Shown: piece by piece, positions 6,990 to 34,062 of the stretch | Layout: each line of letters starts with the position of its first letter | Numbering within the stretch: position 1 is the first letter of the stretch | Assembly: GCA_013298895.1 (NCBI GenBank) | Contig: JAAFJM010000001.1 | Location: forward strand, 186,001-250,000 | DNA length: 64,000 bases | Source: Bacteroidota bacterium | Lineage (GTDB): Bacteria > Bacteroidota > Bacteroidia > UKL13-3 | Direction: 5' to 3' | Notes under the pieces: generated by a model | Database searches by the model: none | Told to the model about the DNA's origin: nothing | The model's input: the letters and a program-made list of their open reading frames with translations, nothing else | Translations under genes and position numbers: made by a program

Positions 6990-8756
6990 ATGAGTACCAA
7001 AAATTTCAACGCACATAGTTTTCATATTCCGGTTATGGGTATTGGTTTTACCATCGATTCACCTATAAAAGTGGCAGCTTATGGCATTTCATCTACACTC
7101 TCTTTGGTTGATGATGTTTTGATGGAAAAATTGCGCGCATTTTATTCAGAAAAATGGAATTTGCCTTTTGAGGCCATTACCAATAAAGTAGAAGACTCAA
7201 GGGCTAAACGCATTACGGCTTATTTAAATATGGTTGATCAAATTGTGAAACAAAAGTTTGAACAATTAAAACAATCGGTAGCCGAAAAAGGTGGCGAGTT
7301 TGAAAAATACATGAATATGTTGCCCGATTATGCCGAAATAAAAAAGCAATTCAACAGTTTTATTGATAATAATAAAACCATTGACGACCTTAAAAATTGG
7401 GCTAATACCCATTTACAAATGGGTAGCATTGATGTAAATATAATGACCAAATTAGACAAGGAAAATAAGTTTAATAACGAAAAACTTCCTGTAATTTACA
7501 ACGATGCCCATGCAGCTTTGCGTGGTTTTGCTAACAGTAATTTACATTCGTCTATTGTACTTTCGGCAGGTATGAACCCAAGACTTTACGCTTATTTTGA
7601 GCAATTAGACAACTTTTTTCTAGACCAAAATGGTAATTTAGAAAAAAAGGTGATTTTAAAAATTAGTGATTACCGTTCTGCTTTAATTCAAGGAAAATTT
7701 TTAGCTAAGAAAGGTATTTGGATTTCGGAATACAGGGTTGAATCGGGTTTAAATTGTGGTGGACATGCTTTTGGAAGTGATGCTTCGCTAATGGGGCCTA
7801 TTTTAGAAGAATTTAAACAAAACAAACAAGAGTTAATAAATGCCATTCACCAAGTGTATATAGCTGCTTTGGCCGAAAAAAACAAGTTTGTGCCTGCTGA
7901 ACCTTTGCCCGTTAAATTTACTACTCAAGGTGGAGTTGGCACAGCAGAAGAGCATCAGTTTTTATTAGAAAAATATGAGTTAGATTCAATTGGCTGGGGA
8001 ACGCCATTTTTATTGGTTCCTGAAGCCACCACTGTAGATAACGAAACATTAGATTTGCTTTGCAAGGCAAAAGAAACTGATTTGTATTTAAGCAGTATTT
8101 CGCCATTAGGGGTTCCATTTAACTCGTTAAAAGGCAACACCAAAGATTCTGAAAGATTAGAATGGATAGCTAAAGGAAGACCGGGAAGCAGCTGTCCGCG
8201 CGAGTTTGCTAAACTTAATAACGATTTTACCGAAGAGGTAATTTGTACGGCATCGCGCCAATATCAAAACCTAAAGTTACAAGCATTACAAGCACAAGAT
8301 TTACCAACTGAGGAGTTAGAAGCGGCCAACGATTTAGCCATGCAAAAAACTTGTTTATGTGTGGGTTTAGGTACTTCGGCTTTATTGGTAAATGATTTGA
8401 ATACTCGTACCGAAGGCCCTGGAGTAGCAGTTTGCCCTGGTCCAAATATGGCTTATTACTCTAAAATTGTTTCGCTACAAACCATGTGTGGCCATATTTA
8501 TGGTAAAGAAAATTTGGTAGATAATCCTAACAGACCTCATGTGTTTTTAAAAGAATTGGAACTAAATTTAGATTTTTACCATAACCAACTTAAAAGTTAT
8601 TTAGCCAAACCAACCGATGCAATGAAAAAACAGCTCAATAATATGGCCAAAAACTTAGAAAGTGGAATTCATTATTACATGGAATTATTCCATAATCAGC
8701 CCAATATGATCAATCAATTAGCTACTTATAAAATAACAACTTTAACAAATGGATAA
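6990..8756 (+). CDS. Large conserved protein of unknown function
   Basis: A 588-residue protein without signal peptide or membrane helices, so probably cytoplasmic. I do not recognise its family. It contains glycine-rich and loop motifs suggestive of a TIM-barrel or FMN/phosphate-binding enzyme: RVESGLNCGGHAFGSDAS, FTTQGGVGTAEEHQFLL and SIGWGTPFLLVPEATTV. It also has cysteines clustered late in the chain (GSSCPREF, KTCLCVGLG, AVCPGPN, MCGH) that could hold a metal or cluster. Resemblance to glutamate-synthase or nitronate-monooxygenase barrels is only a guess. It overlaps a 30-codon membrane-protein gene by 8 bp and may be cotranscribed with the DinB remnant. Confidence 0.7.
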   Translation: MSTKNFNAHSFHIPVMGIGFTIDSPIKVAAYGISSTLSLVDDVLMEKLRAFYSEKWNLPFEAITNKVEDSRAKRITAYLNMVDQIVKQKFEQLKQSVAEKGGEFEKYMNMLPDYAEIKKQFNSFIDNNKTIDDLKNWANTHLQMGSIDVNIMTKLDKENKFNNEKLPVIYNDAHAALRGFANSNLHSSIVLSAGMNPRLYAYFEQLDNFFLDQNGNLEKKVILKISDYRSALIQGKFLAKKGIWISEYRVESGLNCGGHAFGSDASLMGPILEEFKQNKQELINAIHQVYIAALAEKNKFVPAEPLPVKFTTQGGVGTAEEHQFLLEKYELDSIGWGTPFLLVPEATTVDNETLDLLCKAKETDLYLSSISPLGVPFNSLKGNTKDSERLEWIAKGRPGSSCPREFAKLNNDFTEEVICTASRQYQNLKLQALQAQDLPTEELEAANDLAMQKTCLCVGLGTSALLVNDLNTRTEGPGVAVCPGPNMAYYSKIVSLQTMCGHIYGKENLVDNPNRPHVFLKELELNLDFYHNQLKSYLAKPTDAMKKQLNNMAKNLESGIHYYMELFHNQPNMINQLATYKITTLTNG

Positions 8757-8841
8757 GATAATTTTTGGAATTGTATTGCTGCATTTGGTTGCAGGTTTTG
8801 GTTGGGTTATTTATAAAATGGAGTTCAAAAACAGGAAATAA
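8749..8841 (+). CDS. 30-residue single-span membrane protein
   Basis: A very short reading frame that starts inside the end of the preceding gene (8 bp overlap) and stops at TAA, sharing one base with the ATG of the DinB frame (TAATG). This is classic translational-coupling geometry. The product begins MDKIIFGIVLLHLVAGFGWV. It is one hydrophobic helix of about 20 residues followed by a basic tail (KMEFKNRK), so N-out or N-in topology is possible. No function is known. The tight overlaps with both neighbours are the main support for it being real. Confidence 0.6.
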   Translation: MDKIIFGIVLLHLVAGFGWVIYKMEFKNRK

Positions 8842-9295
8842 TGCAACCACAAACCGAAACACTTTTAGCGCTATGGATAGAGGCTAGAACAAGATTTACC
8901 AATCAATTAACTAAATTAATCGAGGCCAATTTGCAGAAAAGATTACCGCCTTCGCCAAATTCAGTTGGGTTTTTAATAAGGCATATTGGTGATGTAGAAT
9001 GCTTTTTGCTAAAAATGTATTTGGCGATAGCAGCATAAAGGTGTCGGCTCAAACAGTAATTGCGCAAAAGGATACTGGCGAATGGATTCATTTAGAAGAG
9101 CTATTAAGTTATGTAGCACATTCATTTTCTGTATTAGAAACCATTGTTAAAACCCAAACTGATGCTGATTGGAATAGCATAATTACCACTAAAGAATTTG
9201 GAACCAAAACTAAAGCTGAAGCCTTTGGTAGAATTGTATCGCATACTGCTTACCATGCAGGTCAAATGGCTATATTGGTTAAGTATGGAATATAG
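8841..9295 (+). pseudogene. DinB-family protein, disrupted by a -1 frameshift
   Basis: Two overlapping frames together encode one DinB/YfiT-like four-helix protein of about 150 residues. Frame one (8841-9038) gives the N-terminal helices, ending in VGFLIRHIGDVECFLLK. The second frame carries NVFGDSSIKV through the C-terminal VSHTAYHAGQMAILVKYG. The metal-ligand histidines expected of the family fall in RHIGD and HTAYHAGQ, in different frames. The frames join at an A-run near 9010-9014 (GCTAAAAATG), where one extra A would restore a continuous protein. A sequencing or assembly indel, a true pseudogene, or slippage on the A-run are all possible. Confidence 0.75.
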
Positions 9296-9333
9296 AAAAA
9301 GCCACTATAAATACTGAAAATGTATTAAATAAA

Positions 9334-10221
9334 TTAATCTTTACTTGCTTTAAATAGAAGTTCTTTTTCCGACTTACTTAAGCTTTCATAGCCACTTTTA
9401 CTTATTTTATCAAGAATAGCATCTATATCGGCTTGATTTGGCTTGTTTATATTGTTGGCTGTGATTGGCCTATTTTTACTCTCTCCTTTATGATGAATAG
9501 TAAGTTTAGATTTAGGTTTAAATATATTACCAAAGAACGAACTAACTGAATGTACTGCATTGGTAAAAGCATTATTGGTATATAAATATTTAATAAATAA
9601 ATAGCCAGCCAATGCACCTCCTAAATGTGCAATTCTTCCACCTGCATTACTGCTTGGAATATTGAGTAAATCAATTAAAACACTAAAAATAGCTATGTAT
9701 CTTAACTGAACAGCAAAAACGCCAAATAACATGACAGTATATTGGGGTAATAAAGTGGCTGCAGCAGTAACCATGGCTAAAACCCCAGCTGATGCTCCCA
9801 AGGCATAAGAATCAGGTAAAGCATCTTTAAATACAGGAAAAACGTTGTAAAAAAGTAAGTATAACAAACCTCCTCCAATACCACCCAAAAAATATATTTG
9901 ATACACACGCGCATTACCCAAATATTCGTGTAACAACATTCCTAGCCAATACATCCATAACATATTAAATAGTATATGAAAAAAGCCAGAATGCAAAAAC
10001 ATATAAGTTACCAAACCCCATGGATGAGTGATAAAATTAGTTGGAGAAGCGTATAACACAAAAAGTTTTTGAACAGAATCCAAAATATCTGTGGCTTGAA
10101 ATAACCAAAATAATAAATGAGCAATAGCAAAAACTAAATATACAGCCACATTTAGCGCAATGAGTTTTACCACTGCATTATTCTGTGCAAGCTTATATTT
10201 TATATCATCGAAAAAAGACAT
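9334..10221 (-). CDS. Rhomboid-family intramembrane serine protease
   Basis: A 295-residue polytopic membrane protein. The rhomboid catalytic dyad is visible: S144 in GASAGVLAM and H199 in RIAHLGGALAGY. The conserved LFNMLWMYWLG helix motif precedes them. A hydrophilic C-terminal tail of about 60 residues ends in DIDAILDKISKSGYESLSK..., a small helical domain seen at the end of Bacteroidota rhomboids. It should cleave transmembrane substrates within the inner membrane, and the substrate is unknown. It is the last gene of the mutL-rhomboid-rhomboid transcript, 28 bp after the other rhomboid. Confidence 0.9.
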   Translation of the reverse strand: MSFFDDIKYKLAQNNAVVKLIALNVAVYLVFAIAHLLFWLFQATDILDSVQKLFVLYASPTNFITHPWGLVTYMFLHSGFFHILFNMLWMYWLGMLLHEYLGNARVYQIYFLGGIGGGLLYLLFYNVFPVFKDALPDSYALGASAGVLAMVTAAATLLPQYTVMLFGVFAVQLRYIAIFSVLIDLLNIPSSNAGGRIAHLGGALAGYLFIKYLYTNNAFTNAVHSVSSFFGNIFKPKSKLTIHHKGESKNRPITANNINKPNQADIDAILDKISKSGYESLSKSEKELLFKASKD

Positions 10222-13009: not shown

Positions 13010-13039
13010 TTGTTCGTTTAAACATTCAAATTATATTTG
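13010..13039 (+). promoter_or_regulatory. Bacteroidota sigma-type promoter of the B12 locus
   Basis: TTG at 13010-13012 and TATATTTG at 13032-13039 are separated by 19 bp. They match the Bacteroidota housekeeping consensus TTG-N(17-23)-TAnnTTTG. Initiation about 6-7 bp downstream would fall at the 5' edge of the cobalamin riboswitch, which supports the call. Confidence 0.7.
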
Positions 13040-13044
13040 CTGCG

Positions 13045-13260
13045 CATTTGGTTTTTAAAGAAGCTGTTTGGCTATTTCAAAAATTAAAAGGGAATCAGGT
13101 GAAAAACCTGAACAGTACCCGCTGCTGTGAGTATCATATTTTAACCATAAAAAGTTAAAGTCAATTTTTGTTTCAAATCTTTGTCACTGTTGCGCCAAGC
13201 GAAACGGGAAGACCAAACAAAAGTGATACGAGTCAGAAGACCTGCCAATTGCAAAAACAT
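13045..13260 (+). promoter_or_regulatory. Cobalamin (adenosylcobalamin) riboswitch
   Basis: The conserved core is plainly visible. AAAAGGGAATCAGGTGAAAA starts near 13087, followed by ACCTGAACAGTACCCGCTGC, the GTCACTG element near 13184, the CGGGAAG segment near 13205, and the B12 box AGTCAGAAGACCTGCC at about 13231-13246. A GTTTTT/AAAAAC pairing (13051-13056 with 13253-13258) can close the element. Past it, TTTCGGGAATAAAGG, a small hairpin and a T-run (about 13308-13330) could form the expression platform. It should repress the downstream BtuB-like receptor operon when cobalamin is plentiful. Confidence 0.96.
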
Positions 13261-13414
13261 ATTGTAGCTTTCGGGAATAAAGGCTTGCAGTGGTTTCGAT
13301 TTATTTTAACTTTTAAAAAGTTTCTTTTTTCGGCATCATTACTTCAACGATAAATTGATGTATGCTTTGTTGCATGTATTAATTTCCGTTTGCTACAGTT
13401 TAATTTTATAAAAA

Positions 13415-22025: not shown

Positions 22026-22889
22026 ATGAGGCAACTAAAAATCAGTAAACAGTTTACCAACCGTGAGAGTAAATCGTTAGATAAATATCTAAACGAAATT
22101 AGCAAGGTTTCCATGATTGATGCGCAAGAAGAAGTAGAGCTTGCACGTAGAATTAGAGAGGGAGATCAAGTAGCTTTGGAGCGTTTGGTAAATGCAAATT
22201 TACGTTTTGTGGTTTCTGTATCAAAGCAATACCAAAACCAAGGTTTAACACTTGGTGATTTAATAAACGAAGGAAATTTAGGATTAATAAAAGCAGCCAA
22301 AAGATTTGATGAAACCCGTGGTTTTAAATTCATTTCTTATGCTGTTTGGTGGATTCGTCAATCAATTTTACAGGCTTTAGCGGACCAAAGTCGTATTGTT
22401 CGTTTACCTTTAAATAAGGTTGGTTCAATAGGTAGAATTGGAAATGCTGCTGCTAAGTTAGAGCAAGAATTAGAGCGTGAACCAACTGTAGAAGAAATTG
22501 CCTTATCTATGGATATTCCAATTTTAGAAGTAGAGAATGCATTACGTAGCACTGGTCGTCATTTATCAATTGATGCGCCTTTAACGGAAGGAGAGGACAA
22601 TACTTTATTAGGTATTTTGGATAGCAATGATGAGCCAAGACCAGATGTTCAGTTAATCAACGAATCGTTACAAAAAGAAATTAACCGTGTTATTTCAACA
22701 TTAAGCGAAAAAGAAAAAGATGTGTTGAAATTCTATTATGGTTTAGATGGTGGACCAGCGCATACACTAGAAGATATCAGTGAAAAAATTGGTTTAACAC
22801 GCGAGCGTGTGCGCCAAATTAAAGAAAAAGCACTTCGCAGATTACGTAAATCATCTAAGAGCAAAATTTTAAAATCTTATTTAGGATAA
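22026..22889 (+). CDS. rpoD: Primary RNA polymerase sigma factor, RpoD/SigA family
   Basis: A 287-residue sigma-70 factor of the short Bacteroidota type lacking the long region 1.1. Region 1.2 is [20 protein letters not shown]. Region 2 has [37 protein letters not shown] and the [11 protein letters not shown] core. Region 3 follows, and region 4 contains [19 protein letters not shown], the helix-turn-helix for the -33 element. It recognises the TTG/TAnnTTTG promoter type seen before the B12 locus. It is transcribed alone with a strong terminator. Confidence 0.97.
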
Positions 22890-22981: not shown

Positions 22982-23368
22982 CTACTTAGACCCACTAATT
23001 TCATGGTATATTCCTCCTCCTTGTCCGCCAGAATTACGAATTATATTTACTTTTAAAGCACTTTCAAATACTCCTGAACTCATGCGAGTATCTTTTGGGA
23101 AAATAAAGTTACCTTTTTCATCTATTTCTGCCGTAATTTCATCGTCTGGAGTATATTTTATTCTTATTTCTTTTGTATTACTTGCCAATTCAATGAGGCC
23201 AACAAATTCTAAAGAATCTGACAAGTGATAACCAATATACTTTGTATTATGTTCTTCCCTCTCCACCTTAAAAAACCAACTGCCCGTATATTTTTTACGA
23301 TAATCAACAGGTTCTTTGGTGCAACCAAAAATTAGGCAAAGAGTAATTAAGATAATTAATTTTTGCAT
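22982..23368 (-). CDS. Small lipoprotein of unknown function
   Basis: A 128-residue predicted lipoprotein: the signal peptide ends CLIFGC with the cysteine at residue 16. The mature part contains YTGSWFFKVEREE and beta-rich sequence resembling small lipocalin-like or immunoglobulin-like Bacteroidota lipoproteins, without a recognised domain. It starts 2 bp after the stop of the other small lipoprotein, so both are read from one minus-strand message. Confidence 0.7.
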   Translation of the reverse strand: MQKLIILITLCLIFGCTKEPVDYRKKYTGSWFFKVEREEHNTKYIGYHLSDSLEFVGLIELASNTKEIRIKYTPDDEITAEIDEKGNFIFPKDTRMSSGVFESALKVNIIRNSGGQGGGIYHEISGSK

Positions 23369-23370
23369 GA

Positions 23371-23853
23371 TTAATTTATTGGAATAATTTCGAAGGTTCC
23401 ATTTATAGGTGTAGTATCAACTTTTGAGGTAAATGCACTATCTTTCACTATATAGTTCCAACTACAATTTCCTTTTAATATGTACCTTTCATTATTATTA
23501 TTAAAGCTACCTGTTACATAAATTTTATCAAATAAAATATACCCCCCTGCATCAAGTCTCCATAAATTAGGATAAGTGTTTTTAAAGTTTAATGTTCCAT
23601 TAAAAGTATTATTATTTTTACTTATTAAAGAAGTAAAATCTGTACTTTCTTTATATCTAATTTCAAATTTATTTCCTAAATTTTTTATCCTAATATCATC
23701 GTATTGCCTTGAAATACTATCTGATATAGTACCATCCTTTTCAATTCCTTTAAATGTAGCTATATAATATCCATCGTATGGTATTGAATCTTTAACGCAA
23801 TTTGAAAACGTAAATATGATGACAGTAATTAAGGTTAATTTAAATTGTTTCAT
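23371..23853 (-). CDS. Small lipoprotein of unknown function
   Basis: A 160-residue predicted lipoprotein: signal peptide ending FTFSNC, cysteine at residue 19, then VKDSIPYDGYYIATFKG. It shares with its downstream neighbour the arrangement of lipidated cysteine, short spacer and a Y-x-G-x-(W/Y) strand, so the two may be diverged paralogues. No function is recognised. It is the first gene of the pair. Its promoter should lie in the 518 bp gap beyond 23853. Confidence 0.7.
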   Translation of the reverse strand: MKQFKLTLITVIIFTFSNCVKDSIPYDGYYIATFKGIEKDGTISDSISRQYDDIRIKNLGNKFEIRYKESTDFTSLISKNNNTFNGTLNFKNTYPNLWRLDAGGYILFDKIYVTGSFNNNNERYILKGNCSWNYIVKDSAFTSKVDTTPINGTFEIIPIN

Positions 23854-24189
23854 ATCTATACCCAGAATAAAAATAATGTAGTTGATTGATGGTATCGCAA
23901 TTTAATTTTTTTACATGAATGTGATCCTATCAAAAAAACTTTTTAAGAACATAGAACTAAACTCTTACCCGAATTATTAATCATATTTTTTCACAAGTAA
24001 TATTTTTTAATATGTAAAATTTATTTTTCATTTGGTTGCAAAACATAAAAAATTACGTTCTGCATAAAGTTCTAATAAAACTTTTTTATGCGAAATTTTA
24101 TTTAAGTACAACAAACCATTTATAATATGTAATTGAATTTAATTGCAAGAGCAATTTGAAATAAAAAATTCAACACCTTTTTAATGGAA
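23854..24189. other. Gene-free AT-rich spacer
   Basis: About 336 bp with no convincing reading frame on either strand, very AT-rich. It probably holds the minus-strand promoter of the lipoprotein pair. I see no RNA gene or strong hairpin here. Confidence 0.4.
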
Positions 24190-24367
24190 CTTTGGTAATT
24201 ATACGTCTGACGCCTTAGCAGCGCAATGGCTTTTTAAGCGTCTGACGAAAGTGAAATCCAAATTGTATTAATTTGCAATTGGGATTTTTTAGTTAAATAG
24301 GCCTTTGGTAATTATCCGTCTAACGCCTTGGCAGCGCAATGGCTTTTTAAGCGTCTGACGGAAGTGA
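24190..24367. repeat. 65-bp direct repeat pair flanking a copy of the rpoD terminator
   Basis: Two 65-bp copies (24190-24254 and 24303-24367), about 92% identical, begin CTTTGGTAATTAT and end near AAGCGTCTGACG(A/G)AAGTGA. Each has two CGTC-n-GACG mini-palindromes about 26 bp apart; in copy two one is changed to CGTCTAACG. Between them, at 24254-24291, is a hairpin nearly identical to the rpoD terminator at 22910-22946. The GC-rich words contrast with the AT-rich surroundings. The block abuts the stop of the minus-strand gene at 24372 and may have been built by duplication or by a small mobile repeat. Confidence 0.75.
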
Positions 24368-24371
24368 GAAT

Positions 24372-25058
24372 TTAATTTACATTATTAGTTTCATTACCAA
24401 AAATAAATTTTAACCCTAAAGATAAATTGGTTGGTATAAATGAAACTGCAATATTATTTGTAATATTAGTATTGCTTGTTTCAGGAGAATGCGAATAACT
24501 AAAAAAGTTGGTTTGCCCTTCTATCATTAGGTTTGGTTTGATTAAATAAGCTGCACCCAAATTGCCACCCAAACTAAATGCCCAATAATCAGAATTCCCT
24601 TTATATTCAGGAGAACCAAAATTATTTGATTGGACATAAGAATTTTCAATGTATGAGGCAGCAATAGCTGGCGTAAAAGTAAAGGCAACCTTATTAGTAG
24701 CAAACCAATACTTTTTAAATTGAACCTGCAAACCATAGTTCTTAAAGTTGTAATTGTAGTCGTAAGTATTAGAGGCTAATGTAGTTTTTTCGTTGATAGT
24801 ATTAATACCATAATTGAGGCCAACTCCAAAACTTAAATTTTTACCTATAAAATACTCGAAAACTGGTTGAACGGCAAAACCTAAGGTATTTCTGGTTGTT
24901 TCGGTAGCTGAGGTATTTGAGTTTCTTTCATTACTCGATTTGTTTAGGTTATAATTTGCAGCTAGGTTAAACCCTAAGGCTTTTGCACCTTTATTTATTT
25001 GGGCGTTAGCCATTAAAACTGATAATAGGGTGAATGCTGTTATTATTGTTTTTTTCAT
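24372..25058 (-). CDS. Outer membrane beta-barrel protein
   Basis: A 228-residue protein with signal peptide (ending LMANAQ) and amphipathic beta strands (FAVQPVFEYFIGKNLSFGVGLNYG, LSLGLKFIFG) typical of small Bacteroidota outer-membrane barrels. Asn/Ser/Thr-rich loops separate strands. No specific function is recognised. It is monocistronic, with the 65-bp repeat block immediately behind it. Confidence 0.72.
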   Translation of the reverse strand: MKKTIITAFTLLSVLMANAQINKGAKALGFNLAANYNLNKSSNERNSNTSATETTRNTLGFAVQPVFEYFIGKNLSFGVGLNYGINTINEKTTLASNTYDYNYNFKNYGLQVQFKKYWFATNKVAFTFTPAIAASYIENSYVQSNNFGSPEYKGNSDYWAFSLGGNLGAAYLIKPNLMIEGQTNFFSYSHSPETSNTNITNNIAVSFIPTNLSLGLKFIFGNETNNVN

Positions 25059-25232
25059 AAATTACGTTGTTTTACTTTTATAAAATGAATTTAAATTATT
25101 GGTTTTATACCCCCAAAATTTTAATTTTTTGCGATTATCTTACTTACTTTTTCGTTAACAAATTTATTTTTTAATATTTTTATTTATGTACTTAAATTAG
25201 TTAAATGTACATGACTTTTTATGGAACAATAA

Positions 25233-25979
25233 TTAAAAAAATAAAACCAACGAAAACACAGGCCTTGACATTTCAGCTATTTTAGTAATAGTTTCCGTTT
25301 CATCAATATAAATGAGTTCATTATCATAGATTTTTGACCCATAAATATTAATCAAATTATTAAGTGCAATTCCAACACCAAAATGTTTAAACATTTGATA
25401 ATTGAGGGCAAGATTGCAATTAACACCATAATTTAAACGAGAACCGCCATATTCTCTAGTATTATAGTTTGCTTGTCCTACTTTATTATCAGCTATTTTT
25501 TTTTCGAAAAAGTTAACATTAAGATTAGCCAATCCTTCTACGGTCAAACTTACCTTTTTTTTCTTATCTATAAAGAATAGTTTACCTATTCCCTTTTGGT
25601 AATTAAATCTCAATCCAGTAATTTCTTCAGTTTTTTCTCTTTTCTCCCAATTATCTTTATCTATATATTTTTGATAAGGCAAAGAGGAATAGTATTTGTC
25701 TTTTCCTATTCCAACCTGGAAAATGGCTAGAAAACGATGGGGTAAAACAATATAACCTTTAACATCAATGCCAGCACTATAATAGGAATATTTCATTGGT
25801 TCTTCTATTACAGGGTATCCTGGAATACTGGTATTGGAATTAATGTTTGTTATTCTATAGTTATTGTCGTTTTTATCGCTGGTAAAATAGGGGTTTATAA
25901 AGAGGATAAACTTACTTGAATCTTGAGCTAATAAAGTATTAGCCAATAGCAAACTAATGATTAAGACTGTATTTTTCAT
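25233..25979 (-). CDS. Secreted, probably outer-membrane, protein of unknown function
   Basis: A 248-residue protein with signal peptide (ending LLAQ) and strand-like alternation throughout, ending in the hydrophobic strand RPVFSLVLFF, as expected of an outer-membrane barrel. It is the last of four genes in a minus-strand operon and starts 1 bp after the stop of the propeller lipoprotein gene. It could be the outer-membrane partner of that system. This is inferred from position only. Confidence 0.65.
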   Translation of the reverse strand: MKNTVLIISLLLANTLLAQDSSKFILFINPYFTSDKNDNNYRITNINSNTSIPGYPVIEEPMKYSYYSAGIDVKGYIVLPHRFLAIFQVGIGKDKYYSSLPYQKYIDKDNWEKREKTEEITGLRFNYQKGIGKLFFIDKKKKVSLTVEGLANLNVNFFEKKIADNKVGQANYNTREYGGSRLNYGVNCNLALNYQMFKHFGVGIALNNLINIYGSKIYDNELIYIDETETITKIAEMSRPVFSLVLFF

Positions 25980-25980
25980 A

Positions 25981-27273
25981 TTAATATTTTACTTCTTCTG
26001 GCAGTTTATAACAAATAGCTTTGTTTCTATCTTGCACATAAAAACAACGTTTTTGTTCATTTATAGCTACCCCATATTGTAAGCAACCATTTGGTAATGA
26101 AACAGGCTTGTTAAAAACAATGGCTCCATTGTCTAAATTCAAAATCAATAAATTATCACATTGAGTAGAGAAGAGGTAGTTTTTAAATACTGATGCATCG
26201 AAAGAAGTAAAGTTGATAGGAGTTAGACCTAAATTATTTAAACTAGCAAATTTTGATTCCCAAACACTAATTCCTGTGTTTTGATTCAAACTAAGTGCGG
26301 TACATTCACTTGTATTTGAAGCATTATCACTTAAAACAATAATATTGTTTTTGTAAAGGAACAAACTTGATCCATATTCTGGCAATTCCTTATTCCATAT
26401 TATACTCCCATCATTTACATCCATGGCGATTAATTCAGCAAAACCTCCATTTTTTGAATTGATAGCAAATGTATAAACCTTATTCTCCATGTTTAACATT
26501 TTACAAACCCTAAATTCTGAATATTTATTTGTGTAATCTCTTTTCCATTCAAATTGTTTGGTATTTAGATTAAATCCACAAACTTTCGAAACGGTTTTAA
26601 GCCTCCCATTTAAGGTATAATCCATGTACAAAGTGAAAACCATTATTTTTTCTCCTTTAGCATTTCTAGAGCTTGCAATGGAGGTACCTAGTACCCTATC
26701 AACGAGTAACGTATCGTTAAAAGTGCAAACCAATTCCCATTTGGGTTCAATATATTTGGTTCTGTAAATATAATAAGTAGAATTTTCTGTTTTACTACCA
26801 AACCCATGATAAATATATCCTTCTTCATCCTTATATATTTGTGGGGAACCAATCATGCTATCCATTTGGTGTTTCCAAAGGGTTTGCCCTGTGTGCATAT
26901 TTAGTGCATATGTACAATTACCACTACATAGAATTAAAGCACTATTTATTTCAATGTTTTTTCCACCTCCAAAATTTTCTTCTACTTTAAAATAATCAGC
27001 CCATTGCCATTTTAATTTTCCAGTATTTCCGTCAAATAGCTTAAAAATTTCTCCTGCAGGATTAGTATATCTTGAACTCATTAATACATCCTTATTGATG
27101 GTGAATTTGGGCGTAATACCAAATCCAATAGGTGCTGTCCATAAAGTATCTAATGCTGGAGTAGGATGTCCCCAAAGATTTTTATAAGGAAGAGGCTTTA
27201 TAGCCTCTTCTTTACACTTACTGCTACTTAAAAAAATAAATAGCAAATAAATAACTACATTATACCCTTTCAT
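25981..27273 (-). CDS. PQQ-like beta-propeller lipoprotein
   Basis: A 430-residue predicted lipoprotein: signal peptide with SSSKC, cysteine at residue 20. The repeats resemble PQQ-type propeller blades, each with a Trp docking turn, for example FDGNTGKLKWQW, LNMHTGQTLWKHQ, MDVNDGSIIWNKE and LNQNTGISVWESK. Such propellers usually act as binding scaffolds rather than enzymes. It is the third gene of the operon with the lipase-like protein (2 bp gap) and could bind the substrate or the barrel partner. No cofactor ligand set for PQQ is obvious. Confidence 0.82.
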   Translation of the reverse strand: MKGYNVVIYLLFIFLSSSKCKEEAIKPLPYKNLWGHPTPALDTLWTAPIGFGITPKFTINKDVLMSSRYTNPAGEIFKLFDGNTGKLKWQWADYFKVEENFGGGKNIEINSALILCSGNCTYALNMHTGQTLWKHQMDSMIGSPQIYKDEEGYIYHGFGSKTENSTYYIYRTKYIEPKWELVCTFNDTLLVDRVLGTSIASSRNAKGEKIMVFTLYMDYTLNGRLKTVSKVCGFNLNTKQFEWKRDYTNKYSEFRVCKMLNMENKVYTFAINSKNGGFAELIAMDVNDGSIIWNKELPEYGSSLFLYKNNIIVLSDNASNTSECTALSLNQNTGISVWESKFASLNNLGLTPINFTSFDASVFKNYLFSTQCDNLLILNLDNGAIVFNKPVSLPNGCLQYGVAINEQKRCFYVQDRNKAICYKLPEEVKY

Positions 27274-27275
27274 AA

Positions 27276-29153
27276 TTATTTTTTTGGAATTGCGAAAAAT
27301 GTGCCGTATTCCCCTTCATATAAAAGGTTCAATACTTCTTTAGTAATAGGACTGTTTTTCATTTGATCATGATTGGTTTTGTCTAAAGGTATAATTTCAT
27401 GGGAAAAACCAGAAGAAACTTTTATTTCTTTTGCTGCCGATTCTGCTAATACCACCCCGTCATTAGGTTTGTATGAGTGAGTTGTTCTAAATTCAGGAAT
27501 TACAGTTAGATTTCCAGTACATGGACCTTGCCACTCTGAACCGTTATGACCTCTAAAACGATAATTAGCATAAGCAACATTTACAGGTTGAATACTGCAA
27601 GCGCTATTAGTAGTATTAAAGTTGTAATCGATATTAATATTTACTGGAGGTACGCCAGAATTAATTGGATTATACCTATTGTCTCTACAATCTAAATTGC
27701 CAACAACACGACAGTTTAAAGTTGTATGTGAAACCCTTGCACCTACTATATCCGTTAAATAATAATCATTGGCATTGGTAAGCCAAACTTTAGCTTTGTC
27801 ATAAGAACGATAATTTTCAATGCATGCATTTTTGTTAGAAGTGGCATTGTATCCTAGTAATCCTAAACCCCAATTAAATCCAAGGAGAAAACTAGATGTA
27901 TAAAATAACGCTTCTTGGTTGCCATAATGGTTGGCCATGATTTGCTCATAATTACTGAGGGCATCAAATTCATTAATCATGCCATAAACACTTACTTCTA
28001 ATTGTTCATCCTTATCATATCCAAAAATAATTTCTTGATCTTTTAGTTCATCTTCCCCTAAAGCAAGTACACTACTCATAAACTTCCATAATACTGGTGC
28101 CTTTTCTACTCCATAAAACTGAACAACAGGTGCTTCTAGTTCATATTCTGAAAGACCTTGAACATGACCATTTGGTGAATTATATCCAGTTAAATATTTT
28201 GATCCATTGTAATAATCTAAGGTTGTTCTTTTGTAATAATTATCTAATGCAAATGGAATAATTGATTTTGAGACCAAACCACAACTTGAATTGACTATTT
28301 TTTCCTGCATGTCACTAGATATTAATAGCTTTGTGCCAAAATTACTGTTGATTTTAGGAATAACATAAGCTCCAGTCAAACTTTTGCAAGCCTCAAGCAT
28401 AAAATTAGGGACTTTATTACTTAAATCAGGCCTTGTATTATTTAATATTTCAGCACCGTCATGAGGAGTACCAAAAGTGACAAGCCCATGAGGAAGGTTT
28501 TTGAAAGTGTTAGGATTAATGGCACTTTGCCTTAGCCATTCTCTACCCACAATGCCACCTTGACTGTGAGCTATAATAAAGTCCTTTGAGGTTCTTTCTG
28601 TTATTGGTACTTCATTGTCCATATAATCTTCAACATCTTGTGTAGCAGATAGTATTCCTAAATCTTCACTATATAGTTGGATAGGATGAGAGCCAGAAGA
28701 AGGTATACCACGATATGAGTTTGCTTTTCGCGCGGGAAATACTACTTCATTATTTTTCATAACACCATACTCAGTAGCTTGTGCAGCTACAGCCCAAGAT
28801 CCGGTAGTGCCATTTAATCCATGTATCCAAAAAATATTAACATCGCCTGGTGATTTCCCTAAACCACCACTTCCAATTACCAAAGTAGTGGTATCAATGG
28901 CCGCAGAATCAAAGTGCATAGAGTCGCTTGGTTCAAATGGCAAATCTCTCAATAAAGGTGGTTTGGAAAGTCGGAAGCAAGGATCAAATTCAGGCATTGC
29001 ATACAAATCCAATCCATGTTTTTGCAATTGCAATTTTAATGAATCCTCGTGCTTAAAATTATTAAGCTTAACTTGATTTTCTTGTGCTTTAGTTAAATTG
29101 ATATGAATCAAAATACTAAAGATTATAACTAAATGTTTTGTATATTTTTTCAT
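27276..29153 (-). CDS. Secreted lipase-like alpha/beta hydrolase
   Basis: A 625-residue protein with signal peptide (ending LTKAQ). An alpha/beta-hydrolase domain covers about residues 100-330. The oxyanion-hole strand is IFWIHGLNGTTGSW (HG at 111-112), the nucleophile elbow is AHSQGGIVG with S197, and FGTPHDGAEIL is typical of triacylglycerol lipases and related esterases. The C-terminal half has no recognised domain and no T9SS sorting domain. It could act in the periplasm or be surface-held by operon partners. Substrate unknown. Confidence 0.8.
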   Translation of the reverse strand: MKKYTKHLVIIFSILIHINLTKAQENQVKLNNFKHEDSLKLQLQKHGLDLYAMPEFDPCFRLSKPPLLRDLPFEPSDSMHFDSAAIDTTTLVIGSGGLGKSPGDVNIFWIHGLNGTTGSWAVAAQATEYGVMKNNEVVFPARKANSYRGIPSSGSHPIQLYSEDLGILSATQDVEDYMDNEVPITERTSKDFIIAHSQGGIVGREWLRQSAINPNTFKNLPHGLVTFGTPHDGAEILNNTRPDLSNKVPNFMLEACKSLTGAYVIPKINSNFGTKLLISSDMQEKIVNSSCGLVSKSIIPFALDNYYKRTTLDYYNGSKYLTGYNSPNGHVQGLSEYELEAPVVQFYGVEKAPVLWKFMSSVLALGEDELKDQEIIFGYDKDEQLEVSVYGMINEFDALSNYEQIMANHYGNQEALFYTSSFLLGFNWGLGLLGYNATSNKNACIENYRSYDKAKVWLTNANDYYLTDIVGARVSHTTLNCRVVGNLDCRDNRYNPINSGVPPVNINIDYNFNTTNSACSIQPVNVAYANYRFRGHNGSEWQGPCTGNLTVIPEFRTTHSYKPNDGVVLAESAAKEIKVSSGFSHEIIPLDKTNHDQMKNSPITKEVLNLLYEGEYGTFFAIPKK

Positions 29154-29167
29154 TGTGTTAATATTTA

Positions 29168-30199
29168 TTAGTGTTTAAAAAAATTTGCAGTTAAGGAAAT
29201 TTGATTATTAGTTATTACTTGTAAAACATATTGACCAGGGGGTATATTTGGTAAATTCACCAAAAAAGTATTTTGGTTATTGTTATCAATATTGATAGTA
29301 TTTCCATTTAATACATTGATAACTTTAACACTGGAAATACTATTTGCTTCGTTAAGTTGAACAGCCGCAGTAAATACTCCCTCGTTAGGATTTGGGTAAA
29401 TATTTATACTTTCAGTTTTTTCTAAAGATTTACTAATTAGTTTTCCATTATCCTGAATATCATATTCATTATAGTAAATAAGTTTTACATCAGTAATGCA
29501 TGGCCCTTTAATCGAATATAGGAACCTTTCTGTTTTATCAATTTTTAGTAAAAAACCTTTATTGTCTAAATATGGCTCATAGCCTTTAGTTTCCTTAGTT
29601 TTTACCCCATCATTATCCGTATATTCTGTTAAAATAGTATAATTGTTTTTATTGAACGTTATACTTTTTGTAGGTAATATCATTTTTGTAATACCATTAG
29701 CCACATTTTTAACTATAATATTTTGGGTTGTTAATTGAGCAATCGCATTTTCGGTGAACTCAGGGAAGGCAGTTAAACCAGGGTGATAGCCATTGCTTTG
29801 AATAAAAAGCTTCCTTTTATTTCTATCTATTATTTGTTCAGGTGAATAAGCAATGCTTTTCATTAAATTGCCGGATTCATCATATAATTCTATGTTATTA
29901 GAAGTATATCTGAATTCTTTGGCTAGTTTCATCCAGTTTTTTTTGTATTCATTATTGTCAACTTTTACTTTAAATTCTGTTTCAAAAGCACTATTAATAG
30001 ATTGAGAATATGTTTTTTCAACAACTTTTAATTCATGCTTTATCTTTTCTGTCTCTGTTACAATCTTTAAATCAGCAGTATCAATTATTCCATAATTATA
30101 CTCTACAATTTTATTAGTTTGTTTGTAAATAATATTCTGCCCAAACGCAAATGTTTGCATAAAACAAAATATTACAATAACTATATTTATTTTTTTCAT
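29168..30199 (-). CDS. T9SS-secreted protein of unknown function
   Basis: A 343-residue protein: signal peptide (ending FAFGQ), a globular part of about 240 residues with no recognised domain, and a T9SS type A sorting domain at the end (SINIYPNPNEGVFTAAV ... PPGQYVLQVITN). It is the first gene of the minus-strand four-gene operon that continues into the lipase-like gene 14 bp later. Its long 5' leader seems to fold. Confidence 0.8.
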   Translation of the reverse strand: MKKINIVIVIFCFMQTFAFGQNIIYKQTNKIVEYNYGIIDTADLKIVTETEKIKHELKVVEKTYSQSINSAFETEFKVKVDNNEYKKNWMKLAKEFRYTSNNIELYDESGNLMKSIAYSPEQIIDRNKRKLFIQSNGYHPGLTAFPEFTENAIAQLTTQNIIVKNVANGITKMILPTKSITFNKNNYTILTEYTDNDGVKTKETKGYEPYLDNKGFLLKIDKTERFLYSIKGPCITDVKLIYYNEYDIQDNGKLISKSLEKTESINIYPNPNEGVFTAAVQLNEANSISSVKVINVLNGNTINIDNNNQNTFLVNLPNIPPGQYVLQVITNNQISLTANFFKH

Positions 30200-30240: not shown

Positions 30241-30408
30241 AGTGCTTTTACTTTCAATTGGTGCCAAAGCGCAAGCAACCTAGGCCATACACGCAGTATT
30301 GCATTTTATAATTTTTTAGCTACTTTCGCAGCTAGATAGGGTGAAGTTTTATTAGCATAACAAGCACTTTATTAAAGGCTTACCTTAGTTGCCGCTTTGG
30401 TAAGCCTT
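30241..30408 (-). ncRNA. Candidate structured RNA leader with pseudoknot
   Basis: Read on the minus strand, this 168-nt stretch upstream of the T9SS/lipase operon has compatible helices. There is a perfect 10-bp hairpin (30399-30408 with 30375-30384). A 7-bp hairpin capped by a GAAA tetraloop lies at 30317-30334. A 7-bp closing stem pairs 30362-30368 with 30241-30247. Long-range pairing joins the loop of the first hairpin (30388-30398) to 30266-30279: GTTGC with GCAAC and CGCTTT with AAAGCG, with a 3-nt bulge. The GAAA loop and a G-U pair favour the minus strand. I do not recognise the class. A riboswitch-like leader is possible. Confidence 0.4.
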
Positions 30409-30667: not shown

Positions 30668-32677
30668 ATGACCACATCACCTAAATATACCAATGCATTA
30701 ATTCATGCTTCAAGTCCTTATTTATTGCAACACGCACACAATCCAGTAAATTGGGTAGAGTGGAGCGAAGAAACGCTGCAAAGGGCCAAAAACGAAGACA
30801 AAATGATATTGGTAAGTATAGGTTATTCGGCTTGCCATTGGTGCCATGTAATGGAACACGAAAGTTTTGAAAACGAAGAAGTGGCCGAACTGATGAACCA
30901 ACACTTTATTTGCATAAAAGTAGATAGAGAAGAACGCCCCGATATTGACCAAATTTATATGGATGCAGTGCAATTGCTAACAGGCAGAGGAGGTTGGCCG
31001 TTAAACTGTTTTGCATTGCCCGATGGAAGACCCCTGCATGGTGGTACTTATTTTCCTATTGAGCAATGGAAAAAAACATTGCAATCCATTGCCGATTTTT
31101 ATAGAGATAGAAAAGAAGAAGCTTTTCAATATGCGGCTGAATTAACCAGTGGCATCAATAAATTAGACCATATTATTCCTGTAGAAAATGCAGAAATTAA
31201 ACTTGAAACCATTGATAAAGCAGTGGAAAACTGGAGCAAAAACTTCGATTTAATTTATGGCGGTTATAATTGGGCACCCAAATTCCCTATGCCTAATAAT
31301 TGGGTGTTTTATTTACAATATTACAAACAAAGCAATAATCCTTTGTATTTAGATGCTGTTATTAAAACACTAGATGGCATGGCAAATGGCGGCATTTTTG
31401 ATCAAATAGAAGGAGGATTTGCGCGCTACAGTACCGATTTATATTGGAAAGCACCTCATTTTGAAAAAATGCTTTACGATAATGGTCAGCTTGTGGGTTT
31501 ATATGCCAACGCTTATCAGTTAACTAAAAATAACCTTTACAAAGACATTGTTTACAAAACCCACCAATTTTTACAACATGAACTAACCCACGAAACAGGT
31601 TTATTTTATTCGGCCTTAGATGCCGATAGCGAAGGTGTAGAAGGAAAATATTATATATGGACACGCCAAGAATTGGTAAGTATTTTAGGCGATGATGAAC
31701 CTTTGTTTAGCATTTATTATTCGGTAGATGCATATGGAAATTGGGAACATGGGGCTAATATTTTATACAAAACACGCAGCCACGAAGGGTTAGAAAAATT
31801 AACGGGTAAAACCATTATTGAAATAGAACAAATCATAAAAAAATGCAATACCTTATTGCTTACCGAACGCAATAAAAAAACCAAACCGGGACTAGATGAT
31901 AAAGTAATCACAAGCTGGAATGCATTGATAATTTCAGGCTATTGCGAAGCTTTTAAAGCATTTGGAGAAAATGCATTTTATACCACAGCACAAAAGGCAT
32001 TGGATAGCATTTTACAATACCTTTGGGTAGATAAAACTTTATATCGAATTTATAAAAATGGTAAAATTAGCATTCCGGGTTTTGCAGAAGATTATGCTTG
32101 TTTAACCAAAGCTTTGATTGATTTTTACCAAATTAGTTTTGACGAAAAATATTTAATAAAAGCCAACGAGTTAATGGAACTAAGCAAGGCTTATTTTTAT
32201 AGCGAAGAAAAAAAATTGTTTTACTTTAAATCGAATACGGATGCTGCTTTGATAGCGCGCAAGTTAGATTTAACCGATGATGTAATACCAAGTGCCAACA
32301 GCATATTTGGGCATTGTTTGCAAGCCTTGAGTTTTTATTTTAGCAATAACCATTACGAAAAAATGGTGGATGACATGCTGCTTTTGGTGCAGCAAAAATT
32401 TGCCAAAACTACCAGCAGTTATACCAATTGGATGCAATTAAGTTTAAATAAACTACAAGGGGTAAAACAAATAGTAATAGCCGGACCCGAAGCCAAAAAT
32501 TATTTTGAGCAATTAAACCAAAACTATTTGCCCAATACCCTTTTTGCATTGGCAGCAGAACAATCGGTTATTTCCTTGGTAAAAGACAAATTACCCATAG
32601 AAAACAAAACCACCATTTATATTTGCCAAGATAAAACTTGCGGATTGCCTGTGTTTAGTTTGGAAGGGATAGGTTAA
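30668..32677 (+). CDS. yyaL: YyaL-like DUF255 thioredoxin-domain protein
   Basis: A 669-residue protein of the YyaL/SSP411 family. The N-terminal DUF255 thioredoxin-like domain holds [12 protein letters not shown] and the CxxC motif in [14 protein letters not shown]. The rest is an alpha/alpha-toroid resembling glycan-processing enzymes ([29 protein letters not shown]). The biochemical role of the family is not settled. No signal peptide is seen. Its last ~70 bp (from 32607) recur twice downstream at 34232 and 36648, marking the edge of an accessory island. Confidence 0.92.
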
Positions 32678-33123: not shown

Positions 33124-34062
33124 ATGAACGCACTTGAAAAGATAAAGTTAATTGACGACATAGGAACTACATTACAATCACGTATGACATTTTCTGAAAT
33201 TGACGCTTATTTCAGTGCCTATGGAATTCCAACTGACCATCAGCCGAGTTATAATAGTAAAAGGGTTTATGTTAAAGAAATTCTTCCAAAAATTAATGAT
33301 GACATAGTAATTCAAATTGCCAATGAGCTACAAATAGAACATAATTATAATAACAAGTTGCCTACATTTAAAGACTCGACAACTACTTTTTGGAAGACAG
33401 GCCATTTCAAATTATTTATAAGCCATCTTTCGGCATTCAAAAAAACAATTGGACATTTAAAGACAGATTTAGAAAAATATGGTATCAGTTCTTTTGTAGC
33501 ACATGAAGACATCGAACCAACCAAGGAATGGCAAGAAGAAATAGAAAAAGGACTTTTTTCAATGGATGCTTTGTGTGCGGTTTTAATGCCTGGATTCAAA
33601 GAGAGTAATTGGACAGATCAGGAGGTTGGAGTTGCAGTCGGACGTGGAGTACTTGTAATACCAATAAGAAAAGAACTCGACCCATATGGCTTCATAGGAA
33701 AATATCAAGGTTTTCAAGCGGTAGGGAAAAATGTTGATCAAGTTGGAGAAGCAATTTTTTTAATAATTTCTAAGAATCCAAAGACTCGTAACAGAATAAT
33801 TTCCTGCTTAGTTGATTTGCTCTTGCTTTCAAATAATAAGACTGAAGCGTTAGAGAGAATAAATGCGATAAGGAAAATTAATGACTTACCTAAAGAAAGA
33901 GTTATTCAAATGAAAACTGGATTTACAGAAAATGACAACCTCAAGGACATCGAAATAATTAGAAATTTCAATGAACTGATTAAGCTATATAATATTCAAG
34001 GAGTAAAACTTAAAGATTTTGACAAGGTTCAAGAAAAAGAAAGTGATGACTTACCTTTTTAA
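33124..34062 (+). CDS. TIR-domain protein with SSB-like C-terminal tail
   Basis: A 312-residue soluble protein. Residues 1-90 form a mostly helical N-terminal region not recognised. Residues 95-205 are a TIR domain: box 1 KLFISHLSAF (96-105), HEDIEPTKEWQEEIEKGL in the BB-loop region, and SNWTDQEVGVAVGRG, whose E167 sits where catalytic TIR domains carry the NAD-hydrolysing glutamate. A helical C-terminal region ends in EKESDDLPF. That tail equals the DDLPF end of the SSB-like DUF3127 protein encoded 2.9 kb downstream. Frequent GAC and ACA codons differ from the neighbours. A defence NADase is likely from the domain but unproven. Confidence 0.85.
   Translation: MNALEKIKLIDDIGTTLQSRMTFSEIDAYFSAYGIPTDHQPSYNSKRVYVKEILPKINDDIVIQIANELQIEHNYNNKLPTFKDSTTTFWKTGHFKLFISHLSAFKKTIGHLKTDLEKYGISSFVAHEDIEPTKEWQEEIEKGLFSMDALCAVLMPGFKESNWTDQEVGVAVGRGVLVIPIRKELDPYGFIGKYQGFQAVGKNVDQVGEAIFLIISKNPKTRNRIISCLVDLLLLSNNKTEALERINAIRKINDLPKERVIQMKTGFTENDNLKDIEIIRNFNELIKLYNIQGVKLKDFDKVQEKESDDLPF

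What the first reader, a model, noticed from the sequence alone, without database searches (positions are those of the whole stretch)
30241..30408. Pseudoknot-like leader RNA before a secreted lipase operon
On the minus strand a perfect 10-bp hairpin, a GAAA-capped hairpin and a 7-bp closing stem coexist. In addition, the loop of the first hairpin can pair over 11 bp (5+6, one 3-nt bulge) with a distal segment. That many compatible helices in 168 nt is unlikely by chance in AT-rich spacer DNA, and position in the 5' leader suits a regulatory RNA.
Basis: seen in the sequence. Interest (0 to 1): 0.6.

Follow-up and report, generated by a model that had tools for sequence, protein, structure and literature searches.

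The report
Cassette-swapping leader with hidden octapeptide gene
The stretch is the start of a messenger RNA that carries a tiny eight-amino-acid gene wrapped in RNA hairpins, and the same start is found in front of unrelated, swappable genes for exported proteins in related lake bacteria, which suggests a shared control switch for interchangeable surface proteins.

Summary
A covariance model finds 18 copies in 7 of the 10 genomes held of this freshwater Bacteroidota genus and none in 87 genomes of other genera. All 17 copies with the whole stretch carry an 8-codon upstream ORF, MLIKLHPI-stop (window 30358-30332). All 6 of its variable columns out of 27 are silent; 1 of 200,000 simulations does as well. 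A GAAA hairpin starts directly after its stop codon in 17 of 17 copies. The 5' hairpin and a 3' H-type pseudoknot show compensatory changes. The closing stem looks like chance. Downstream genes differ from copy to copy but encode exported proteins (15 of 16 by a simple test). At one locus two genomes share the leader up to 60 nt past the uORF start, then carry unrelated cargo. Best reading: a leader-peptide (uORF) attenuator whose 5' module is a common control unit for exchangeable exported-protein cassettes. The signal and output step are inferred.

The parts
30244..30408 (-). leader element as a whole (P1 to the 3' strand of pseudoknot helix S2)
   Evidence: 18 copies by covariance model in 7 of 10 genomes of the genus; alignments A2, A3, A5
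30375..30408 (-). hairpin P1 (10 bp in the window, 14-nt loop); in the other copies a lower stem plus a GGUG/CACC apex
   Evidence: 6 of 10 pairs with changes on both sides, 0 of 500 shuffles as high
30332..30358 (-). upstream ORF ATG CTA ATA AAA CTT CAC CCT ATC TAG = MLIKLHPI-stop
   Evidence: 17 of 17 copies encode MLIKLHPI-stop; all 6 variable columns silent
30320..30331 (-). hairpin P2 with GAAA loop, starting directly after the uORF stop codon
   Evidence: 0-nt spacing in 17 of 17; 100% of cells paired
30284..30302 (-). hairpin P3 (sequence variable, hairpin kept in four kinds of 3' half)
   Evidence: 88% of cells paired; folds of the other kinds
30260..30280 (-). pseudoknot helix S1 (GGU(U)GC 30280-30275 with GCACC 30264-30260)
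   Evidence: 93% of cells paired in the homologues as aligned; in the window 5 bp with a bulged U (sequence)
30244..30270 (-). pseudoknot helix S2 (GCUUU 30270-30266 with AAAGC 30248-30244)
   Evidence: 100% paired, 2 of 5 pairs with changes on both sides
   Evidence: partly kept in homologues, inconclusive
29168..30199 (-). first cargo gene, 343 aa, signal peptide and T9SS type A sorting domain
   Evidence: TIGR04183 33.3 bits, cut-off 23
27276..29153 (-). second cargo gene, 625 aa secreted, weakly esterase/lipase-like
   Evidence: Palm_thioest 20.5 bits and DUF676 18.5 bits, both below cut-off
25981..27273 (-). third cargo gene, 430 aa lipoprotein-like beta-propeller (PQQ_2)
22982..25979 (-). 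remaining cargo genes of the island (248, 228, 160 and 128 aa)
   Evidence: the 228-aa protein is OMP_b-brl_2
30668..32677 (+). left flank of the insertion site: thioredoxin-like 669-aa gene
   Evidence: abuts the rpoD-like gene in 4 related genomes
22026..22889 (+). right flank of the insertion site: rpoD-like sigma factor gene, 287 aa
   Evidence: sigma factor named by inspection of its sequence

Best explanation
This is the 5' leader of an mRNA for exported proteins. It holds an upstream ORF of eight codons (MLIKLHPI) followed at once by a small hairpin, and it is flanked by a 5' hairpin and a 3' pseudoknot. Shown by comparison: the reading frame is kept through silent changes, the hairpins and the pseudoknot through compensatory changes, and the 5' module (P1, uORF, P2) is shared while the 3' half and the genes behind it are exchanged. 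Inferred: the uORF is translated; its ribosome pauses or terminates slowly at the HPI-stop end under some condition, with P2 inside the ribosome footprint; and this changes folding further down (pseudoknot versus another fold, possibly the P1-apex to pseudoknot-strand helix) and so the yield of the cargo mRNA. Because the start region of the first gene is not sequestered in pseudoknot-free folds, the output is more likely Rho-dependent or pausing-based termination, or mRNA stability, than classic hiding of the ribosome-binding site. Recombination within the leader lets new exported-protein cassettes come under the same control.
For: 17 of 17 copies encode MLIKLHPI-stop with 6 silent variable columns; 1 of 200,000 simulations equals it. 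A codon-degenerate MLIKLHPI-stop pattern matched 5 times in 395 genomes of the class, all in these leaders. P2 starts directly after the stop in 17 of 17. P1 covaries: 6 pairs changed on both sides, 0 of 500 shuffles. S2 of the pseudoknot is 100% paired with 2 compensated pairs. The uORF stop lies 121-186 nt before the first gene in 15 of 16 cases, same strand in all. 15 of 16 first genes look exported by a simple N-terminal test against 22 of 49 ORFs of the window, and 9 of 16 have the T9SS sorting domain. Locus D-2, G001 against G002: 93% identity runs through the leader to uORF +60, the cargo is unrelated, and 96.6% identity resumes 4 nt after the last cargo stop.
Against: No transcript, ribosome-profiling or reporter data exist here. 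The copies come from one genus and from few independent events, so counts of copies overstate independence. The uORF codons are nearly fixed (21 of 27 columns invariant, including third positions of ATA, AAA and CCT), so constraint is not on the peptide alone. Pseudoknot-free folding shows no change of the first gene's start region when a ribosome sits on the uORF stop, and no intrinsic terminator was seen by eye. A TAnnTTTG-type promoter is found at the expected place (90-103 nt before the uORF) in only 7 of 17 copies, with one further match farther upstream in the window. Most T9SS genes (107-150 matches per genome) lack the element, as do 3 of 10 genomes of the genus.
Confidence: 0.6

Rival explanations
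1. A metabolite- or ion-binding riboswitch: the invariant stretch is the ligand-binding core and the match to a reading frame is accidental; the exchangeable 3' halves are expression platforms.
For: Highly conserved apparently unpaired core between hairpins, pseudoknot, position in a 5' leader, different 3' halves on one 5' module.
Against: All 6 variable columns fit one reading frame ending in TAG or TGA exactly at the hairpin. Cargo shows no shared metabolism. No Rfam riboswitch matches.
Confidence: 0.15
2. Mainly a DNA-level exchange site: the repeat is kept because homologous recombination between copies (and between REP palindromes at the other end) swaps cargo, and any RNA role is secondary.
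For: Cargo swap with a breakpoint inside the leader at locus D-2 and at the first codons at D-1; REP palindromes at island ends and a single REP in the empty site of G008 and G007; same loci, different cargo.
Against: Compensatory changes in helices and silent changes in the uORF need selection on RNA and peptide. No recombinase is linked as far as noticed. Orientation is always sense to the cargo. Cargo also turned over at locus T without the element (G003).
Confidence: 0.12
3. The octapeptide itself is the product (a small signal or protein-binding peptide) and the RNA structures only tune its translation.
For: The amino-acid sequence is invariant in 17 of 17 copies.
Against: Zero spacing to P2 and a conserved structured context point to cis action; no export signal in 8 residues; several copies per genome would be redundant.
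Confidence: 0.06
4. The uORF raises translation by ribosome reinitiation at the downstream gene.
For: Such a role has been proposed for bacterial leader genes (PMC4833913, abstract start in a search listing).
Against: The gap of 121-186 nt with stable hairpins between stop and next start is long for reinitiation (general knowledge).
Confidence: 0.05

Closest known systems
Translational and transcriptional attenuators with leader peptides (ermC, cat; tetQ of Bacteroides CTnDOT)
   Same: Short uORF in the 5' leader next to alternative hairpins; tetQ shows the principle in Bacteroides (PMC5418344, passages). A 5-codon cat-86 leader peptide is recalled, not looked up.
   Different: Those hide the ribosome-binding site or use terminators before one resistance gene; here neither was found, and the same leader heads many unrelated exported-protein genes.
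toiL uORF of E. coli topAI
   Same: uORF in a structured upstream region, linked to Rho-dependent termination (PMC12121999, abstract).
   Different: Single locus, antibiotic sensing, ribosome-binding site occluded by structure.
Bacteroid-trp leader (Rfam RF01692)
   Same: Bacteroidetes leader motif listed as probably cis-regulatory (PMC2864571, table passage); that it encodes a leader peptide is recalled.
   Different: No match to our region at any reported score; different gene context.
Integron-like or allele-exchange systems for surface proteins (e.g. P. gingivalis allelic exchange)
   Same: Interchangeable cargo at fixed loci (PMC5266723, abstract start in a search listing).
   Different: No integrase or attC-type palindrome noticed; the shared part is a leader with a uORF.

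Membership tests
Leader-peptide (uORF) attenuator | short conserved ORF upstream of the main gene | tested here: met
   17 of 17 MLIKLHPI-stop, silent variation only
Leader-peptide (uORF) attenuator | conserved RNA structure adjoining the uORF | tested here: met
Leader-peptide (uORF) attenuator | output device: ribosome-binding site hidden or intrinsic terminator | tested here: not met
   start region 56-87% unpaired and unchanged with a ribosome on the uORF stop (pseudoknots not modelled); terminator judged by eye only
Leader-peptide (uORF) attenuator | condition-dependent ribosome stalling in the uORF | not testable with these tools
   needs ribosome profiling or toeprinting
Known Rfam RNA families (incl. 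Flavo-1, Bacteroidales-1, Bacteroid-trp) | covariance-model match at or near the gathering score | tested here: not met
   only sub-threshold matches (PK-SPCSV 18.6 of 36; antisense trpB 31 of 59)
Riboswitch | ligand-binding core not explained by coding | tested here: inconclusive
   the core is explained by a reading frame, but nearly fixed codons leave room for RNA constraint
Integron cassette array | attC-type recombination sites and a linked integrase | tested here: inconclusive
   no such palindrome and no recombinase noticed in ORF lists of the fetched islands; no dedicated integrase search was made

The most novel reading that the evidence does not exclude
A modular control socket: one genus-wide 5' module (hairpin P1, octapeptide MLIKLHPI, GAAA hairpin) senses translation through an arrest-type octapeptide, and exported-protein cassettes with their own 3' leader module are plugged in behind it by recombination inside the leader. 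Unrelated surface proteins in different species thus come under one signal.
Probability: 0.35. Interest if true: 0.82.

Novelty: new variant of a known kind. Interest (0 to 1): 0.66.

Why it matters
Leader-peptide control is known mostly for single genes of resistance or amino-acid metabolism. A conserved octapeptide leader shared by unrelated, exchangeable exported-protein operons would be a way for accessory surface genes to acquire regulation at the moment of acquisition. The cassette breakpoint inside the leader makes that testable. It would also add a candidate arrest peptide of only eight residues in Bacteroidota, whose translation initiation is unusual (recalled).

Tried and rejected
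Rfam: nothing. Dokdonia pacifica pattern hit L071: chance, no hairpins. Viral hit L166: no GAAA hairpin after it; the first viral pattern gave 0. RNAalifold's closing helix CUAC..GUAG rejected: the two rows it loses are those where S2 changed in a compensated way. Weak R2 hits L120, L121, L128 and L129 judged chance by eye; L122, L130, L135 and L138 not inspected; L139 is the truncated G002 copy. L134 and L140 kept as mosaic leaders (P1 plus another middle) and not counted among the 18. Three P1-pattern hits in coding sequence rejected. Second frame near P3 (MQCCV) rejected: not kept between copies (sequences). Literature: no paper with MLIKLHPI; searches listed nothing describing this leader. 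The library lacks most subscription papers, and Wang 2005 on tetQ is not held.

Full report
Observation. The window segment 30241-30408 read on the minus strand contains the helices described. Alone they are weak evidence: z -1.85; the 7-bp closing stem is matched in 75 of 300 shuffles; the loop-distal helix in 0.7% (Watson-Crick) or 6.7% (with G-U) of 5000 shuffles. Rfam has no match.

Homologues. BLAST of 97 related genomes showed several partial copies per genome in the same genus. A covariance model from 10 copies (R1) gave 18 matches in 7 of the 10 genomes held of the genus and none in the 87 genomes of other genera in that set; the genus-only run agreed, and in the order search 7 of 64 genomes matched, all of this genus. 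One copy is cut at a contig start and one at a contig end. A pattern scan of genome contigs found only lake metagenome-assembled genomes of Bacteroidota plus one chance hit in Dokdonia; 'lake' is my reading of the isolate names. The second model, R2 (5' module only), recovered the same 18 and two weak orthologous relatives, L134 and L140, with P1 and a similar 3' motif but another middle.

Structure. P1: 6 of 10 pairs have changes on both sides; for P1 and P2 together 0 of 500 shuffles are as high; P2 is paired in every row (15 rows). The 3' pseudoknot of the main kind: S1 93% and S2 100% of cells paired, with 1 and 2 compensated pairs; P3 88% (10 rows). Five copies have three other kinds of 3' half (L031 at 6029, L038; L037; L046, L051), in which P3 is again predicted as a hairpin. 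With the window row included it is 77% paired with 3 compensated pairs, against 28-65% for slid controls. It excludes the pseudoknot and, in other copies, the P1 apex, so I treat it as a possible alternative state, unproven.

The uORF. The invariant stretch between P1 and P2 reads ATG CTN ATA AAA CTN CAY CCT ATY TAG or TGA: MLIKLHPI-stop in 17 of 17 copies that contain it. The six variable columns are all silent; 1 of 200,000 simulations of four single and one double change does the same. The test counts types of change, not copies, but the copies are related and were found partly through this sequence. P2 (YURYGAAAGUAG) begins with zero spacing after the stop in 17 of 17. The codon-degenerate pattern occurs 5 times in 395 genomes of the class, all in these leaders. 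'MLIKLHPI' is in no paper of the library.

Genes behind the leader. 16 distinct first genes were examined. All lie on the same strand; 15 of 16 have signal-peptide-like N-termini by a hydropathy rule, the exception (L036) having an apparent frameshift in the signal peptide; the same rule accepts 22 of 49 ORFs of the window. Pfam Por_Secre_tail matches 9 of 16, all among the 11 with the main 3' half, none of the 5 others (the window's own match is just under the Pfam cut-off); NCBIfam TIGR04183 confirms those nine above its cut-off. Four of the nine look like one family, so independence is limited. The seven genomes with the element hold 107-150 TIGR04183 matches each, so the leader serves a small subset.

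Cassette exchange. Locus T lies between the thioredoxin-like gene and an rpoD-like gene. It is empty in G001, G005, G007 and G008, holds leader plus cargo in the window genome, G006, G009 and G004 (right flank of G004 differs), and holds cargo without the leader in G003, whose thioredoxin-like protein is 97% identical to the window's; G002's contig ends too early to tell. Locus D lies between a methyltransferase and a DegP-like gene. It is empty with one REP palindrome in G007 and G008 and holds about 10 kb with two leaders in G001. At D-2, G001 and G002 are 93% identical through the leader up to uORF +60, then carry 4.0 and 3.0 kb of unrelated cargo, and are 96.6% identical again from 4 nt after the last cargo stop. 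At D-1 the identity ends just after the first codons of the cargo gene. In G004 the last gene of the G001 D-2 cargo (97% identical) sits at D-1.

Mechanism. Shown: conserved peptide frame, conserved structures, fixed hairpin-to-stop spacing, exchange of cargo behind a constant 5' module. Inferred: translation of the uORF, a pause near HPI-stop and a switch downstream. Hiding of the ribosome-binding site is not supported by pseudoknot-free folds (start region 56-87% unpaired in 14 copies, nearly the same with a ribosome at the stop), so Rho-dependent termination, pausing or mRNA stability is preferred. Nothing identifies the signal.

Known relatives. Leader-peptide attenuation is known, also in Bacteroides for tetQ (PMC5418344, passages read), and uORF control tied to Rho is shown for toiL (PMC12121999, abstract only). 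I found no described family with this peptide or structure in the searches named.

Noticed in passing
window 13032-13263 (+): Cobalamin riboswitch, 91.4 bits.
   Followed up: no
L134 (G001:C6:38315-38417) and L140 (G002:C452:973-1076): Orthologous mosaic leaders with P1 and a CGGCUGUUUGCGCUUAGGCAGC motif but a different middle, before a 250-253 aa secreted gene; a 19-codon frame (MFHTLNKTIIYANLTQKIR, read by eye) lies in between.
   Followed up: partly
L031, L029, L110 upstream of the leaders: Operator-like palindrome TGGTACTTTATGACCATATATGGTTACAAAGTACCA plus GTACCAT repeats before a TACTTTTG-type promoter; GTACCAT is upstream of 7 of 17 leaders.
   Followed up: partly
L031 rc 8315-10054; L029 2850-4589; L110 rc: A histidine kinase and response regulator pair (named by eye) sits between two leader-headed cassettes; the response regulator occurs only in G001, G002 and G004 of 10 genomes.
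   Followed up: no
L029 2223-2780 and L110 rc 2915-3472: A protein that looks like a REP-associated tyrosine transposase (named by recall) next to two kinds of REP-like palindromes at cassette ends.
   Followed up: partly
L036 6440-6670: First gene of the G004 locus T cassette appears frameshifted at a T run within its signal peptide; assembly error or phase variation.
   Followed up: no
L108 (G003, beside DegP): Several tandem small lipoproteins sharing the N-terminal motif PFACNPKEEIAPENPC; the same motif is in the second gene behind the L134 leader.
   Followed up: no
window 33124-34062 (+): 312-aa protein that looks like a TIR-domain protein (by eye, recalled), close to the island.
   Followed up: no
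L046 1448-1559 and L051 1543-1653: Sub-threshold trpB RNA motif on the strand opposite to the leader in both G005 copies (30-31 bits, gathering score 59), probably chance.
   Followed up: no
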